DNA of 63,156 bases from Methanoculleus chikugoensis (GTDB taxonomy: Archaea > Halobacteriota > Methanomicrobia > Methanomicrobiales > Methanoculleaceae), in contig NZ_FMID01000035.1 of assembly GCF_900095385.1 (NCBI RefSeq), positions 1 through 63,156 on the forward strand, given 5' to 3'. The translations under genes and the position numbers were made by a program. The notes under the pieces were generated by a model, which ran no database searches, was not told where the DNA came from, and saw only the letters and a list, made by a program, of their open reading frames with translations. Of the stretch, positions 26,042 through 30,134 are shown in pieces; the stretch's first letter is position 1; every line of letters starts with the position of its first letter.

Positions 26042-26764
26042 CTACCGCATCGCGAGACACCCGCCGGTCACGTCGGCGAAGATCTCCATGAACTGCTCGG
26101 GGTGGTTTAAGAACGCCACCGATCGCGGCCGCCCGACCAGGTCGTAGAGTCCGACCTCTTTCTCGATCCCGATTTCCGGGACCTCCACCGGGTTGCAGTA
26201 GCGCACCGGCGGGGCGTCGGGGTAGCGCGGGTTCTTCACCAGCGCCCCGCCCTCCATCTCGTAATAGGCGGCTCCTTTCAGGTCTGCGTAGGGGCCGTAG
26301 TTGCTTGAGAACTCCGACGAGACGAGGTTCGCCATCACGAGATCCTCTCTTCCGGGGTTGATCGTCACGTGACCGTATCCCGGCGGGATCAGGATCTTGT
26401 CGCCGGCGGTGCCCTCGATCATCACCACGTCGCCGGCATTTCGGGTCTGGAGGAGGTAGTGCCCCGTCCCCTCGAGCACCTCGTAGATCTCCGGGTAGAG
26501 TTCTCCTGCCGGGTTCTCGGTGTGGTAGTGGCCCTTCGTCTTGACGTACTCCCCACAGAGCGTCCGGGCGGGAATGACGGTGATATCGTAGCGAACGCGG
26601 TTCTGCCGGAGCCATTCCCGGTCGCTCTCGCTCTTCGCGAGATCCCGGTACATAAAATAGAGGGGCTGATCGGAGGTGCAACCGGGATCTGCGAGAACCT
26701 CTCGCATCTCCTCGATTGTCCTTACCTGCGGCTCCGCTTTGGGGCCGTCCCAGTACCCGTTCAT
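26042..26764 (-). CDS. pgiA: cupin-type glucose-6-phosphate isomerase
   Basis: 240 residues. It is the archaeal cupin enzyme that interconverts glucose-6-phosphate and fructose-6-phosphate, unrelated to the classical PGI fold. G-H-Y-H-T-E near residue 92, the E-I-Y-E-V-L-E-G-T-G-H-Y block near residue 107 and G-Y-G-H-V-T near residue 142 give the two His, Glu and His metal ligands. The start overlaps the stop of the COG1361 gene by four bases, so the two are co-transcribed, an odd functional pairing. Confidence 0.95.
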   Translation of the reverse strand: MNGYWDGPKAEPQVRTIEEMREVLADPGCTSDQPLYFMYRDLAKSESDREWLRQNRVRYDITVIPARTLCGEYVKTKGHYHTENPAGELYPEIYEVLEGTGHYLLQTRNAGDVVMIEGTAGDKILIPPGYGHVTINPGREDLVMANLVSSEFSSNYGPYADLKGAAYYEMEGGALVKNPRYPDAPPVRYCNPVEVPEIGIEKEVGLYDLVGRPRSVAFLNHPEQFMEIFADVTGGCLAMR

Positions 26765-28044
26765 CTCTGTTTCTTACGGTACACGAATATATAATACCCT
26801 GCTCCGATGATGACGGCCAGAACGGCGATGAGGAAGACCGGATTGGTGAAGAGCGTGCCCTGCCTCTGTTCGAGTGCGACCCGCACTTTCATGGTGTCCG
26901 ATATCTTGCTGTTGTCCAGGTCATCGCGGTAGCGGATCTCGGAGTCGATCCCGTACTCCTTCGCGGTGCCGGCACCGTCGACATTCACCTCGAACCGTGC
27001 CGTCGCGGTCTCGCCCGGGGCGAGGTCGCCGAGGAAGGCGGTGTCGTCGCTGCTGGTGAAGGGGTCGACGGCGCTGATCCGTGCCTGAGCATTGTAGACC
27101 GTTGCCGCTCCTGAGTTCTTATACACGACTTCAAGGATGCTCTTCTGGCCCAGGTAGAGCGTCGACGGGGGTGAGACGACCTCGAAGGCGATCTTGCCGC
27201 CTACGGGAAGGCCGATCGTCGCCGGCCGGGAGGTCGCCGTCTTGCCCTCGTAGTCCTCGTAGGTGACCGCGACGTCCAGCGGGTAGGACTGGGGCTCTGC
27301 GGTGTTGGCAACCGAGACCTTGAACTTCACGTCCACCGTCTCGCCCGGTTCGAACGTCCCGATGTATGCGTTGCCGTCTGTGGGGATGAGCGGGCTCGCG
27401 CCGCTTCTCGTGACCATCGCGATTGCCTTCTCTGCCGTGTCGTGGCCGACGTTCTTCAAGGTCATGTAGACGTAGCCTTCCGTGCCGACGTTCAGCGACT
27501 CGGAACGGATGTCAAGGACCTCGACCTGGAGATCGGGCGTGACCCGCACGGTGAGCGGCAGGGTCAGGGTCTTCTTCTGGTAATTGTAGCGGAGAACGTC
27601 GCCGTAATCTTCAGCATCCGCGAGGTAGGTGTAGGTCACCTCGAGCGGCAGCACGTAGGTACCCGGCTCGGCGGAATCCGCCACCTTCACGTTGAAGACA
27701 GCGGTCGCGGCGCCGCCGCCCGCGATGTCGCTCACGAACTGGGGGTCCGTCTTGACGGTGAACGGCGCGTCGCTGCTCTTGAGCGCCACGGTGACCAGTT
27801 TTGCGGTGTTCGGCTGGTCGTCGGGAGTGACGATGGTCGAACCGACCATCTTGTGGGTATTCAGGCCGCTGTTGGATATGATGACCCCGAGCTGGGTCTC
27901 GGCACCCGGTGCGAACTGGTTGGTGCCGGAAATTGTTGCCGACAGATCGGGGCTTCCATAGAGGTACTTGACGCCCTGCGCCGCCCCCGGCGCAGCCAGG
28001 AGTGCCAGCAGGAGCATCAGTACGGGTAAGTATTGCCAACGCAT
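26761..28044 (-). CDS. COG1361-type surface protein with C-terminal membrane anchor
   Basis: 427 residues. A signal peptide (about 1-22, ending A-A-Q-G) and a C-terminal helix followed by Y-R-K-K-Q-R place it outside, anchored in the membrane. In between are about three Ig-like repeats with the motif N-S-G/N-V-G plus E-P-G-E-T-V-D-V-K-F, typical of COG1361 S-layer-like or CARDB domains. GGTGA precedes the ATG. The promoter TATA (28091-28100) abuts the TnpB element, and an inverted repeat lies between TATA and the start. Confidence 0.82.
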   Translation of the reverse strand: MRWQYLPVLMLLLALLAAPGAAQGVKYLYGSPDLSATISGTNQFAPGAETQLGVIISNSGLNTHKMVGSTIVTPDDQPNTAKLVTVALKSSDAPFTVKTDPQFVSDIAGGGAATAVFNVKVADSAEPGTYVLPLEVTYTYLADAEDYGDVLRYNYQKKTLTLPLTVRVTPDLQVEVLDIRSESLNVGTEGYVYMTLKNVGHDTAEKAIAMVTRSGASPLIPTDGNAYIGTFEPGETVDVKFKVSVANTAEPQSYPLDVAVTYEDYEGKTATSRPATIGLPVGGKIAFEVVSPPSTLYLGQKSILEVVYKNSGAATVYNAQARISAVDPFTSSDDTAFLGDLAPGETATARFEVNVDGAGTAKEYGIDSEIRYRDDLDNSKISDTMKVRVALEQRQGTLFTNPVFLIAVLAVIIGAGYYIFVYRKKQR

Positions 28045-28053
28045 CTCTTCACC

Positions 28054-28076
28054 TTGTTGTTATAGTAGCAACAACA
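28054..28076. promoter_or_regulatory. operator-like inverted repeat at COG1361 gene promoter
   Basis: TTGTTG (28054-28059) and CAACAA (28069-28074) face each other, with a second register TGTTGT/ACAACA (28055-28060, 28071-28076). It lies 15-45 bases downstream of the TATA box on the minus strand, covering the expected transcription start. A TrmB-type regulator is encoded on the other side of the TnpB insertion, a natural candidate binder. Confidence 0.45.
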
Positions 28077-28090
28077 TTTATTGCTAAACA

Positions 28091-28100
28091 GTATATATAC
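28091..28100 (-). promoter_or_regulatory. TATA box of the COG1361-pgi operon
   Basis: GTATATATAC lies about 47 bases upstream of the COG1361 start codon. The TnpB right-end hairpin starts only 17 bases further upstream, so the promoter's BRE side is defined by insertion-adjacent sequence. Confidence 0.55.
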
Positions 28101-28106
28101 ATGATG

Positions 28107-29336
28107 GAGCCAACTACCCCGCCCTAAAGGACGGGGCTTGTACCTGCACCCTTACGAGTGCGCTACATTCGGCTGGTTGACAGACAGCCTACTCAGGCAG
28201 GATATACCTGCTTGAGCAATGTTTCGAGCAGCATTGAGGTCGGCATGGAGTTGAAACCCGCATTTCCGGCACCGGAACGACGAGCCTTCCCGGTTTCCTT
28301 TATAGGCATGCCCACACACCGAGCACTTCTGCGAGGTGTACCGCGCATCAACAAGGACAACCTGCTTTCCCAGATCCTCGGCCTTGTACCGGAGGAACTG
28401 TTCCAGTTCATAGAACGACCAGTTGTTCAGTTTCCGGTTGAACTCTACACCTCTCCGCTTCTGAACCCGGATCTTCGAGAGGTCTTCGAGAGCGAAGACC
28501 GTATACTCGGATTCAACAATCTGCTTCGAGATACAGTGGTTGGTATCAGTCACAAACCGTCTTTCCCGTCCAGCCATCCTGCGGAGTTTCCGCTTAGCCG
28601 ACCGGGTGCCTTTGGACTGCAACTCCCGACGGAGATGGGCGTACTTCGACCGAACGCGCTTCACCTGCTTGGAGTTGAAAAAAGTGTTGTCGGAGCAGAC
28701 CGCGACATTCACGATCCCTCGGTCAATCCCGAGCACCTTGACCTCTTGTACCGGCTCCACATCGGGATGTTCCATCGAGATATGGAGGTAGAACACCTTC
28801 TTTCGCTTATCAAAGGAGATGGTCGAAGTTGTGACCGTCCAGGAGAGATACTGGCGGTGATACTCAGAGATTGGGAATGTTGCCTTGATCCGTCCCCTCA
28901 CCGATGCAATGGTGGCGATACCGTGGATCAGATTTACCGTAATGACCCGCTGGTTGTACCGCATAGCGGCGAGCGGTTTCCGTTCTGGCGGAGACGCGCA
29001 CTTACCAGCTTTCAGGGCTTCGCAGGCACAGTCTCGCGCACCCTGCACCAGAGAGGACGGGAGATCAGGAACAGATTCACGAACAGCCTTGTAGGTCGCC
29101 TTGTGGTTCTCCACCTTATTCCACGTATGGTTCTCAAATCCCCACTGTGCAGAGGCAGAGAACGCAGTGGAATAGGCTCTCATCGTATCGAGGAGAGCAG
29201 AGGAGCCGCCATCGGGCAACTGAAGGTTGAACGTGATTGTTCTAATCACATTCATATATTGAGTATGATACCAGAAAACTGTATTGGAGGTGACGGGCAA
29301 TTCCTCCCTGGCCTGAAGGCCGGGGTCTCCTTGCCC
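28107..29336 (-). mobile_element. IS200/IS605-type element carrying only tnpB
   Basis: The element contains a tnpB gene flanked by the subterminal hairpins expected of this group. At the tnpB 3' side, CCCCGCCC and the facing GGACGGGG (28117-28136) form the right-end hairpin. At the 5' side, GGGCAA/TTGCCC (29295-29300, 29331-29336) enclose an inner C-C-T-G-G-C-C stem. There are no terminal inverted repeats or target duplication, as usual for the family. No tnpA is present. Exact ends are estimates from hairpin positions. Confidence 0.8.
28152..29255 (-). CDS. tnpB: TnpB, RNA-guided nuclease of IS200/IS605 element
   Basis: 367 residues from MNVIRTITFNLQLPDGG; a longer frame to 29300 is less likely. 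The RuvC-like residues are visible as D in G-I-D-R-G (near residue 180), E in F-A-L-E-D-L (near residue 259) and D in H-A-D-L-N-A-A-R (near residue 344). The zinc ribbon is C-S-V-C-G-H then C-R-K-C-G-F. All catalytic positions are present, so cleavage activity is plausible. The guide RNA should come from the 3' end of the gene and the right-end hairpin. Confidence 0.92.
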   Translation of the reverse strand: MNVIRTITFNLQLPDGGSSALLDTMRAYSTAFSASAQWGFENHTWNKVENHKATYKAVRESVPDLPSSLVQGARDCACEALKAGKCASPPERKPLAAMRYNQRVITVNLIHGIATIASVRGRIKATFPISEYHRQYLSWTVTTSTISFDKRKKVFYLHISMEHPDVEPVQEVKVLGIDRGIVNVAVCSDNTFFNSKQVKRVRSKYAHLRRELQSKGTRSAKRKLRRMAGRERRFVTDTNHCISKQIVESEYTVFALEDLSKIRVQKRRGVEFNRKLNNWSFYELEQFLRYKAEDLGKQVVLVDARYTSQKCSVCGHAYKGNREGSSFRCRKCGFQLHADLNAARNIAQAGISCLSRLSVNQPNVAHS

Positions 29337-29342
29337 ATTTAG

Positions 29343-30134
29343 ATGAAGGCTCCTCGGGATGTTCCAACCTCCCTCCTCGAATCTCTCAAATCACTGGGAC
29401 TTACCAAGTACGAGGCCCTCGTATATATCGGGCTTCTCAGAACGGCGGGCGCGACCGCAACGGAAGTTCACGAGATCTCCGGCGTGCCGCGCGCATCCGT
29501 CTACCCGGTTCTCGACCGGCTCGTCCAGAAGGAACTCGTTAGCGTCTCGCACACGACACCCAAACGCTTCGCCGCGGTTCCCCCCGACCAGGGCGTCGAG
29601 AACCTGATGCGCCGGATCGAGAGCGACGCAGAGAGCGCCCGGGCGGGCCTCGACGCCTTTTACCGGGAGAAGGAACTGGAAGGCCGGGGCGACCAGGAAC
29701 TGGTCTGGACGATCTACGGCGAAGAGAATATCAGAACCCGCCTTGCAGGAATGTTTAAGAGTGCGGAACGGAGCGTTGAGTTGCTCGCGACGGGAGACCT
29801 TCTCCAGCGGAGCGTTCTCCCGCTGCTCGATCCCGTTCCCGGCTCCGTGCCGGTCGAGATCGTCACCGAGCGCTGGGCAGGCGAGCAGCCTTCCCGATTC
29901 CGTCTCCATGTCCTCCCGCTCGCCGCTCTCTGCAAAACCCCTATTCTCGCGGAGAAACTGCTGCCGTACGAGAGATCCGGCGTCTTTCTGGTTGACGATA
30001 CCCGGGCGCTGCTCTGGATGGGAGGAGCCGACGGCCAGCCCTCCGCCCTCTATTCGGAGTCCGCGGGGCTCGCGCTCTTTGTGCGGCGGCATATCGCCAC
30101 CGTCATGGAATGGACGAAGGATGCGGTTCAGTAA
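29343..30134 (+). CDS. TrmB-family transcriptional regulator
   Basis: 263 residues. The winged helix (about 8-85) includes S-L-G-L-T-K-Y-E-A-L-V-Y and V-H-E-I-S-G-V-P-R-A-S-V-Y-P, then a coiled stretch and a C-terminal effector domain. The start codon is seven bases from the left-end hairpin of the TnpB element, so its native promoter has probably been displaced or replaced. Before insertion it would have been divergent from the COG1361 gene, a likely target. It overlaps the convergent NrpR-like gene by seven bases. Confidence 0.85.
   Translation: MKAPRDVPTSLLESLKSLGLTKYEALVYIGLLRTAGATATEVHEISGVPRASVYPVLDRLVQKELVSVSHTTPKRFAAVPPDQGVENLMRRIESDAESARAGLDAFYREKELEGRGDQELVWTIYGEENIRTRLAGMFKSAERSVELLATGDLLQRSVLPLLDPVPGSVPVEIVTERWAGEQPSRFRLHVLPLAALCKTPILAEKLLPYERSGVFLVDDTRALLWMGGADGQPSALYSESAGLALFVRRHIATVMEWTKDAVQ

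What the first reader, a model, noticed from the sequence alone, without database searches (positions are those of the whole stretch)
28107..29342. TnpB-only element inserted between two divergent promoters, with guide RNA pointing into a promoter
The element has an intact TnpB and both end hairpins but no TnpA. Its left end is seven bases from the TrmB-type start codon and its right end is 17 bases from the TATA box of the COG1361 operon. In this family the guide is the sequence just beyond the right-end hairpin, here TAGTTGGCTCCATCATG, running into that TATA box. The guide would match the COG1361 promoter itself, which could link TnpB binding or cutting to that operon, and the insertion may have cut TrmB off from its own promoter.
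Basis: partly seen in the sequence, partly recalled or inferred. Interest (0 to 1): 0.72.

Follow-up and report, generated by a model that had tools for sequence, protein, structure and literature searches.

The report
TnpB-only insertion at trmB start codon
In a Methanoculleus genome, a small mobile element that carries only the RNA-guided DNA cutter TnpB has landed exactly in front of the start codon of a regulator gene; its guide RNA would recognise the uninterrupted version of this site in sister cells or related species, not the promoter it now sits beside, so it is an ordinary member of a known kind at a well documented insertion site.

Summary
The element is real. Comparison with 31 congeners (genus Methanoculleus), all with an empty site, fixes it at 28109-29342 (1,234 bp), tnpB on the minus strand. 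Corrections: it abuts the trmB ATG directly (0 bases, not 7), having inserted 3' of TTCAT, the reverse complement of trmB's ATGAA. Its right end is 9 bp, not 17, from the TATATATA box. TnpB looks intact (D177/E256/D338, zinc finger, dN/dS about 0.14) and its ωRNA fold is conserved. In the filled chromosome the guide target is preceded by TTGGC, not TTCAT, so TnpB should not act on the COG1361 promoter. The TAM-plus-guide target exists only in empty alleles (16 of 29 aligned congeners: TTCAT and at most 1 mismatch in 16 nt). This fits TnpB's known retention/homing role, not regulation. That trmB lost its promoter is well supported: the conserved upstream region, with a TATA-like TTTAT 32 bp before the ATG, is now 1.2 kb away. 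No Y1 transposase was detected in this genome. New member of a known kind; modest interest.

The parts
28109..29342 (-). IS1341-type (TnpB-only IS200/IS605-like) element, 1,234 bp, exact ends
   Evidence: Empty sites of 31 congeners join window 28108 to 29343; sister copies G018, G004, G024 share the same ends
28152..29252 (-). tnpB, 366 aa, RuvC D177/E256/D338 and zinc finger (C310, C313, C328, C331) present
   Evidence: Pfam Cas12f1-like_TNB 2.4e-25 and OrfB_IS605; NCBIfam guided_TnpB 196 bits against a cut-off of 100; PDB match to Cas12f-type structures; residue positions; dN/dS 0.13-0.18 between copies
29295..29336 (-). left-end (LE) imperfect hairpin GGGCAA..CCCTGGCC/GGCCGGGG..TTGCCC
   Evidence: Read from sequence; conserved in sister copies
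29343..29347 (-). target site / TAM TTCAT, identical with the reverse complement of trmB's ATGAA
   Evidence: Empty-site comparison; TCAT or TTCAT at the LE of related copies
28109..28230 (-). ωRNA scaffold: 3' end of tnpB plus right end
   Evidence: MFE z-score -4.0, 0 of 200 shuffles; consensus fold of 4 copies with 3 compensatory pairs
28117..28137 (-). right-end (RE) terminal hairpin GCCCCGTCC/TTTA/GGGCGGGG
   Evidence: also at other RE copies in this genome
28109..28116 (-). RE tail TAGTTGGC; relatives have TAGTTGAC (one substitution in the presumed RE cleavage motif)
28089..28108 (-). predicted guide TCCATCATGTATATATACTG (first 16-20 nt of host DNA beyond the RE)
   Evidence: Follows from the corrected boundary and the rule in PMC8612924; only match in the genome is this site
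28092..28099 (-). TATATATA, likely TATA box of the COG1361 operon, intact
   Evidence: Conserved in 28 of 29 aligned congeners; the remaining one (G034) is diverged; role inferred from position
28077..28081 (+). TTTAT, candidate TATA box of a leaderless trmB transcript, 32 bp before the ATG in the empty site (30-34 in congeners)
   Evidence: Present in all 29 aligned empty sites; role inferred
28054..28076 (.). conserved inverted repeat TTGTTGTTATAGTAGCAACAACA, candidate TrmB-family operator
   Evidence: Conserved in all aligned congeners; role inferred
29343..30134 (+). trmB-family regulator, 263 aa, ORF intact; start ATG at this position in all aligned congeners
   Evidence: Pfam TrmB 6.6e-21; dN/dS 0.11-0.17
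26761..28044 (-). COG1361-type S-layer/CARDB-domain protein gene, first gene of the divergent operon
   Evidence: Pfam CARDB and NPCBM_assoc

Best explanation
An IS1341-type (TnpB-only) element inserted once, in this species' lineage, 3' of a TTCAT target formed by the antisense of trmB's start (ATG AA). It carries an apparently functional TnpB and ωRNA. The ωRNA guide is the host DNA just beyond the right end, TCCATCATGTATATAT. That sequence is a TnpB target only where it follows TTCAT, i.e. in the empty allele (a sister chromosome after excision or loss, or incoming DNA from related strains). Cutting there would restore or spread the element by homologous repair. In the filled chromosome the guide match follows the element's own TTGGC, so it is not a target and COG1361 is not regulated by TnpB. 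The side effect is local: trmB is detached from its conserved upstream region and should be expressed less or differently, while the COG1361 core promoter is intact. Shown: element, exact ends, intact reading frame and RuvC residues, ωRNA fold, empty sites, absence of a second target. Inferred: activity, TAM identity at the nuclease level, homing, effect on trmB.
For: Empty site in 31 of 31 resolved congeners. RuvC D/E/D and zinc finger present. dN/dS 0.13-0.18 between copies. ωRNA fold z -4.0, with 3 compensatory pairs. TTCAT or TCAT at the left end and TTGAC at the right end of sister copies. No other match to the 16-nt guide (2 mismatches or fewer) or to TAM plus 15 nt (3 or fewer) in the genome, except its own flank where the 3 mismatches fall in the TAM. 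23 of 29 aligned empty sites carry TTCAT; 9 with a perfect 16-nt match, 16 with at most one mismatch. TAM dependence and the retention model: PMC8612924; gene drive on plasmids by the same logic: PMC11870625.
Against: No expression or cleavage data. The copy differs from relatives at the RE tail (TTGGC for TTGAC) and lacks the GATATATC box that G018 has upstream of tnpB, so it may be poorly expressed or fixed in place. No Y1 transposase was detected in the genome, so excision and loss, the situation in which retention matters, may no longer happen. TAM TTCAT is inferred from insertion sites only.
Confidence: 0.8

Rival explanations
1. One reading: TnpB with its guide binds or cuts the COG1361 promoter in this genome and so regulates that operon, like a TldR repressor.
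For: The true guide covers the whole TATATATA box. TnpB-derived RNA-guided repressors that bind promoters exist (TldR, PMC13418256).
Against: The TAM position in the filled site reads TTGGC, not TTCAT. RuvC triad intact, so binding with a TAM would cut the chromosome. The guide follows mechanically from the insertion site; it is not an independent choice of target.
Confidence: 0.04
2. Inert relic: the element is no longer mobile (no Y1 TnpA in the genome, altered RE tail), and TnpB/ωRNA is not expressed or plays no part; only the insertion's effect on trmB matters.
For: No Y1 transposase in G000, G004, G018 or G024; the RE tail substitution; the lost TATA-like box upstream of tnpB; single copy in this genome.
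Against: tnpB has no stop or frameshift, catalytic residues are kept, and the scaffold stem in this copy is kept by compensatory changes. dN/dS 0.14 reflects the whole history of the copies, not only the time since this insertion.
Confidence: 0.3
3. Insertion next to start codons is a special targeting device: the element family aims at ATGAA starts and so plants guides in promoters.
For: About 12 of 36 related left ends abut the start of a long ORF (HD protein, FMN reductase, RpiA-like, Mre11-like and others), against 4.4% of all ATGAA sites; 14 of 36 have an ORF of 180 codons or more against 15% (p 5e-4).
Against: Among ATGAA sites outside gene bodies in a congener, 27% are gene starts, and 12 of 36 is then not unusual (p 0.23). 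The motif plus loss of insertions inside genes explains it.
Confidence: 0.06

Closest known systems
IS1341-type TnpB-only elements of the IS200/IS605 superfamily
   Same: Single tnpB (366 aa) between LE and RE hairpins, 1,234 bp, no tnpA, RE ωRNA; size as described for IS1341 elements (PMC9956272).
   Different: No tested feature differs in kind; TTCAT/TTGAC ends and host genus are details. The mobility of such elements is an open question in the literature.
ISDra2 TnpB (IS605 group, TAM TTGAT)
   Same: Insertion 3' of a pentanucleotide on the LE side without target duplication; guide from DNA flanking the RE; intact RuvC (PMC8612924).
   Different: TTCAT in place of TTGAT; no TnpA gene in the element or the genome; archaeal; nuclease activity not tested.
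TldR (TnpB-like nuclease-dead repressors)
   Same: RNA from an RE-like scaffold with a guide; here the guide happens to cover a promoter (PMC13418256).
   Different: RuvC intact here, still inside transposon ends, no partner gene, no TAM at the promoter.
Archaeal sotRNA/ωRNA of IS1341-type genes (Halobacterium salinarum)
   Same: Sense RNA overlapping the tnpB 3' end and RE, in an archaeon (PMC12558985).
   Different: Expression shown there; only predicted here.

Membership tests
IS1341-type TnpB-only element | TnpB of the OrfB_IS605/Cas12f-like TNB type | tested here: met
IS1341-type TnpB-only element | LE and RE with subterminal hairpins shared by independent copies | tested here: met
IS1341-type TnpB-only element | No tnpA (Y1) or serine recombinase in the element | tested here: met
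   The element holds tnpB and an antisense frame only; no Y1 in the genome; the one resolvase-domain gene lies on contig C13
IS1341-type TnpB-only element | Insertion 3' of a short motif without target-site duplication | tested here: met
   Empty-site comparison
RNA-guided TnpB nuclease (OMEGA) | RuvC D/E/D and zinc finger | tested here: met
RNA-guided TnpB nuclease (OMEGA) | Structured ωRNA at the tnpB 3' end and RE | tested here: met
   Fold prediction and compensatory pairs; no Rfam family reached its threshold
RNA-guided TnpB nuclease (OMEGA) | ωRNA expression and TAM-dependent cleavage | not testable with these tools
   Needs RNA-seq and cleavage assays
TldR | Inactivated RuvC domain | tested here: not met
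   D177, E256, D338 present
TldR | Guide target with a TAM at a promoter elsewhere in the genome | tested here: not met
   Only match is its own flank without TTCAT

The most novel reading that the evidence does not exclude
A chromosomal homing TnpB in a methanogen genus: because the element sits on a start codon and core promoter conserved across the genus, its guide matches the empty alleles of many sister species (16 of 29 aligned: TTCAT and at most one mismatch), so TnpB-made breaks could carry a transposase-less element between species by recombination. In addition, the orphaned trmB promoter (TTTAT at 28077-28081) would now fire into the right end and make RNA antisense to the ωRNA.
Probability: 0.12. 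Interest if true: 0.6.

Novelty: new member of a known kind. Interest (0 to 1): 0.3.

Why it matters
It gives one TnpB-only element with exact ends, a clean empty site in 31 relatives and a predictable guide, in a genome where no Y1 transposase was found. That is a usable test case for the open question whether IS1341-type elements are autonomous, are mobilised from elsewhere, or persist by homing. It also shows why 'the guide points at a promoter' is a by-product of the insertion site and not evidence of regulation: the TAM is missing in the filled allele.

Tried and rejected
(2) Start-codon targeting as a special property: enrichment against all ATGAA sites, but gone once sites inside genes are left out; the ORF calling is rough. 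(3) Off-target guide matches in the own genome: none. (4) Rfam: nothing above threshold on the element; HEARO on the wrong strand at E 0.075 was taken as chance. (5) TldR reading rejected by the intact RuvC and the absent TAM. (6) Long plus-strand ORF antisense to tnpB (28158-29342, also about 390-400 aa in sister copies): in codon-aligned antisense register its stops correspond to TTA, CTA and TCA codons, rare in GC-rich genes, so taken as a codon-usage by-product; not tested further. (7) Relaxed selection on trmB after the insertion: no sign (dN/dS 0.11-0.17 against 0.12-0.24 between congeners), which cannot tell a recent insertion from continued function. (8) Two key papers (Meers 2023, Wiegand 2024) are not held.

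Full report
What is there. The window is a whole contig (G000:C62) of a 2.65-Mb genome. Between the divergent genes COG1361 (26761-28044, minus) and trmB (29343-30134, plus) lies a tnpB of 366 aa on the minus strand, 28152-29252.

Exact ends. In a search of the genus with the element and its flanks, flank positions 1-69 of the query (28040-28108) and 1303/1304-1381 (29342/29343-29420) lie side by side in 31 of the 34 other genomes; the other three (G019, G020, G023) are incomplete at this place. Sequence of these sites shows window 28108 joined to 29343. The element is therefore 28109-29342, 1,234 bp. In tnpB orientation: TTCAT | CTAAATGGGCAAGG ... GGGCGGGGTAGTTGGC | TCCATCATGTATATATACTG. Three sister copies at 83-84% DNA identity (G018, G004, G024) have the same ends; more distant copies in Methanofollis and UBA207 also have TTCAT, and the right-end tail is TTGAC in nearly all. 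The window copy has TTGGC, a single change.

The element abuts the ATG (0 bases, not 7). The TATA box is 9 bases from the right end (not 17). The first 8 bases of the stated guide belong to the element. The corrected guide covers the whole TATATATA box, so the geometric observation is even stronger than stated, but the conclusion drawn from it does not follow.

Why the guide does not act on the promoter here. TnpB needs both the TAM and the match (PMC8612924). The insertion itself separates the two: TTCAT stays at the left end, the guide-matching DNA at the right end behind TTGGC. The genome has one match to the 16-nt guide at 2 mismatches or fewer, the flank itself, and one match to TAM plus 15 nt at 3 or fewer, again the flank with all three mismatches in the TAM. 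The target exists in empty alleles. Of 29 aligned empty sites, 23 have TTCAT, 9 of these match all 16 guide positions and 16 match with at most one mismatch. Five congeners have a one-base-shorter spacer and do not match in register. This is the geometry of the retention model (PMC8612924) and of TnpB gene drive on plasmids (PMC11870625).

Is TnpB functional? The RuvC residues D177, E256, D338 and four zinc-finger cysteines are present. dN/dS between copies is 0.13-0.18. The 3' end plus right end folds far better than shuffles (z -4.0), and a stem that differs in this copy is kept by three two-sided changes. Against activity: the RE tail change, and loss of the GATATATC box seen about 30 bp upstream of tnpB in G018. 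No Y1 transposase was found in this genome or in the three genomes with sister copies, while 7 of 35 genus members and 5 control genomes ring. A single resolvase-domain gene is on another contig. How the element moved is open; contigs are incomplete, so a missed transposase is possible.

Effect on trmB. In all 29 aligned empty sites the order is COG1361 ATG, an inverted repeat TTGTTGTT...AACAACA, TTTAT, TATATATAC, then trmB ATG. TTTAT lies 30-34 bp before the trmB ATG, the spacing expected for a leaderless archaeal transcript (inference); TATATATA is too close to the ATG to serve trmB and fits COG1361. The insertion leaves all of this on the COG1361 side. So trmB's likely promoter and operator are now 1.2 kb away, pointing into the element's right end, where they would make RNA antisense to the ωRNA and tnpB (inference). 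trmB remains an intact, constrained ORF.

Start-codon adjacency. Of 36 related left ends, about 12 abut the start of a long ORF. TTCAT is the antisense of ATGAA. Against all ATGAA sites this is an excess, but among ATGAA sites outside gene bodies 27% are gene starts, and the excess disappears (p 0.23). It is a by-product of the motif and of selection.

Verdict. Real, correctly recognised as a TnpB-only element, and a well-defined insertion that detached trmB from its promoter region. The proposed link between TnpB and COG1361 is not supported. New member of a known kind.

Noticed in passing
window 28054-28076: A perfectly conserved inverted repeat TTGTTGTT...AACAACA in the 5' region of COG1361 across the genus, overlapping the upstream side of the candidate trmB TATA; looks like an operator shared by the divergent pair.
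   Followed up: partly
L066 (G018), L067 (G001), L133, L140, L142 (G001), L126 (G016): Short elements of about 330-340 bp with the same left and right ends and TTCAT target but no tnpB: non-autonomous derivatives, present in genomes without a detected Y1 transposase.
   Followed up: partly
L081, L084, L086 (G007, G001): 1,559-bp elements with the same type of ends but a different, 480-aa-frame OrfB-like protein, nearly identical in two species; suggests shared ends among several TnpB subfamilies.
   Followed up: no
window 28158-29342: A 394-aa open frame antisense to tnpB whose TAG stop touches trmB's ATG; similar antisense frames in three sister copies. Probably a codon-usage effect.
   Followed up: partly
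G000:C15:30856-31587, C56:46048-46803, C4, C36, C48, C34, C32: The genome holds eight further TnpB-like matches, in keeping with a genus rich in TnpB genes (up to 18 in one genome).
   Followed up: no
window 26042-26764: A cupin-type glucose-6-phosphate isomerase follows COG1361 on the same strand, so the divergent operon may be tied to sugar metabolism, as expected for a TrmB-type regulator.
   Followed up: no
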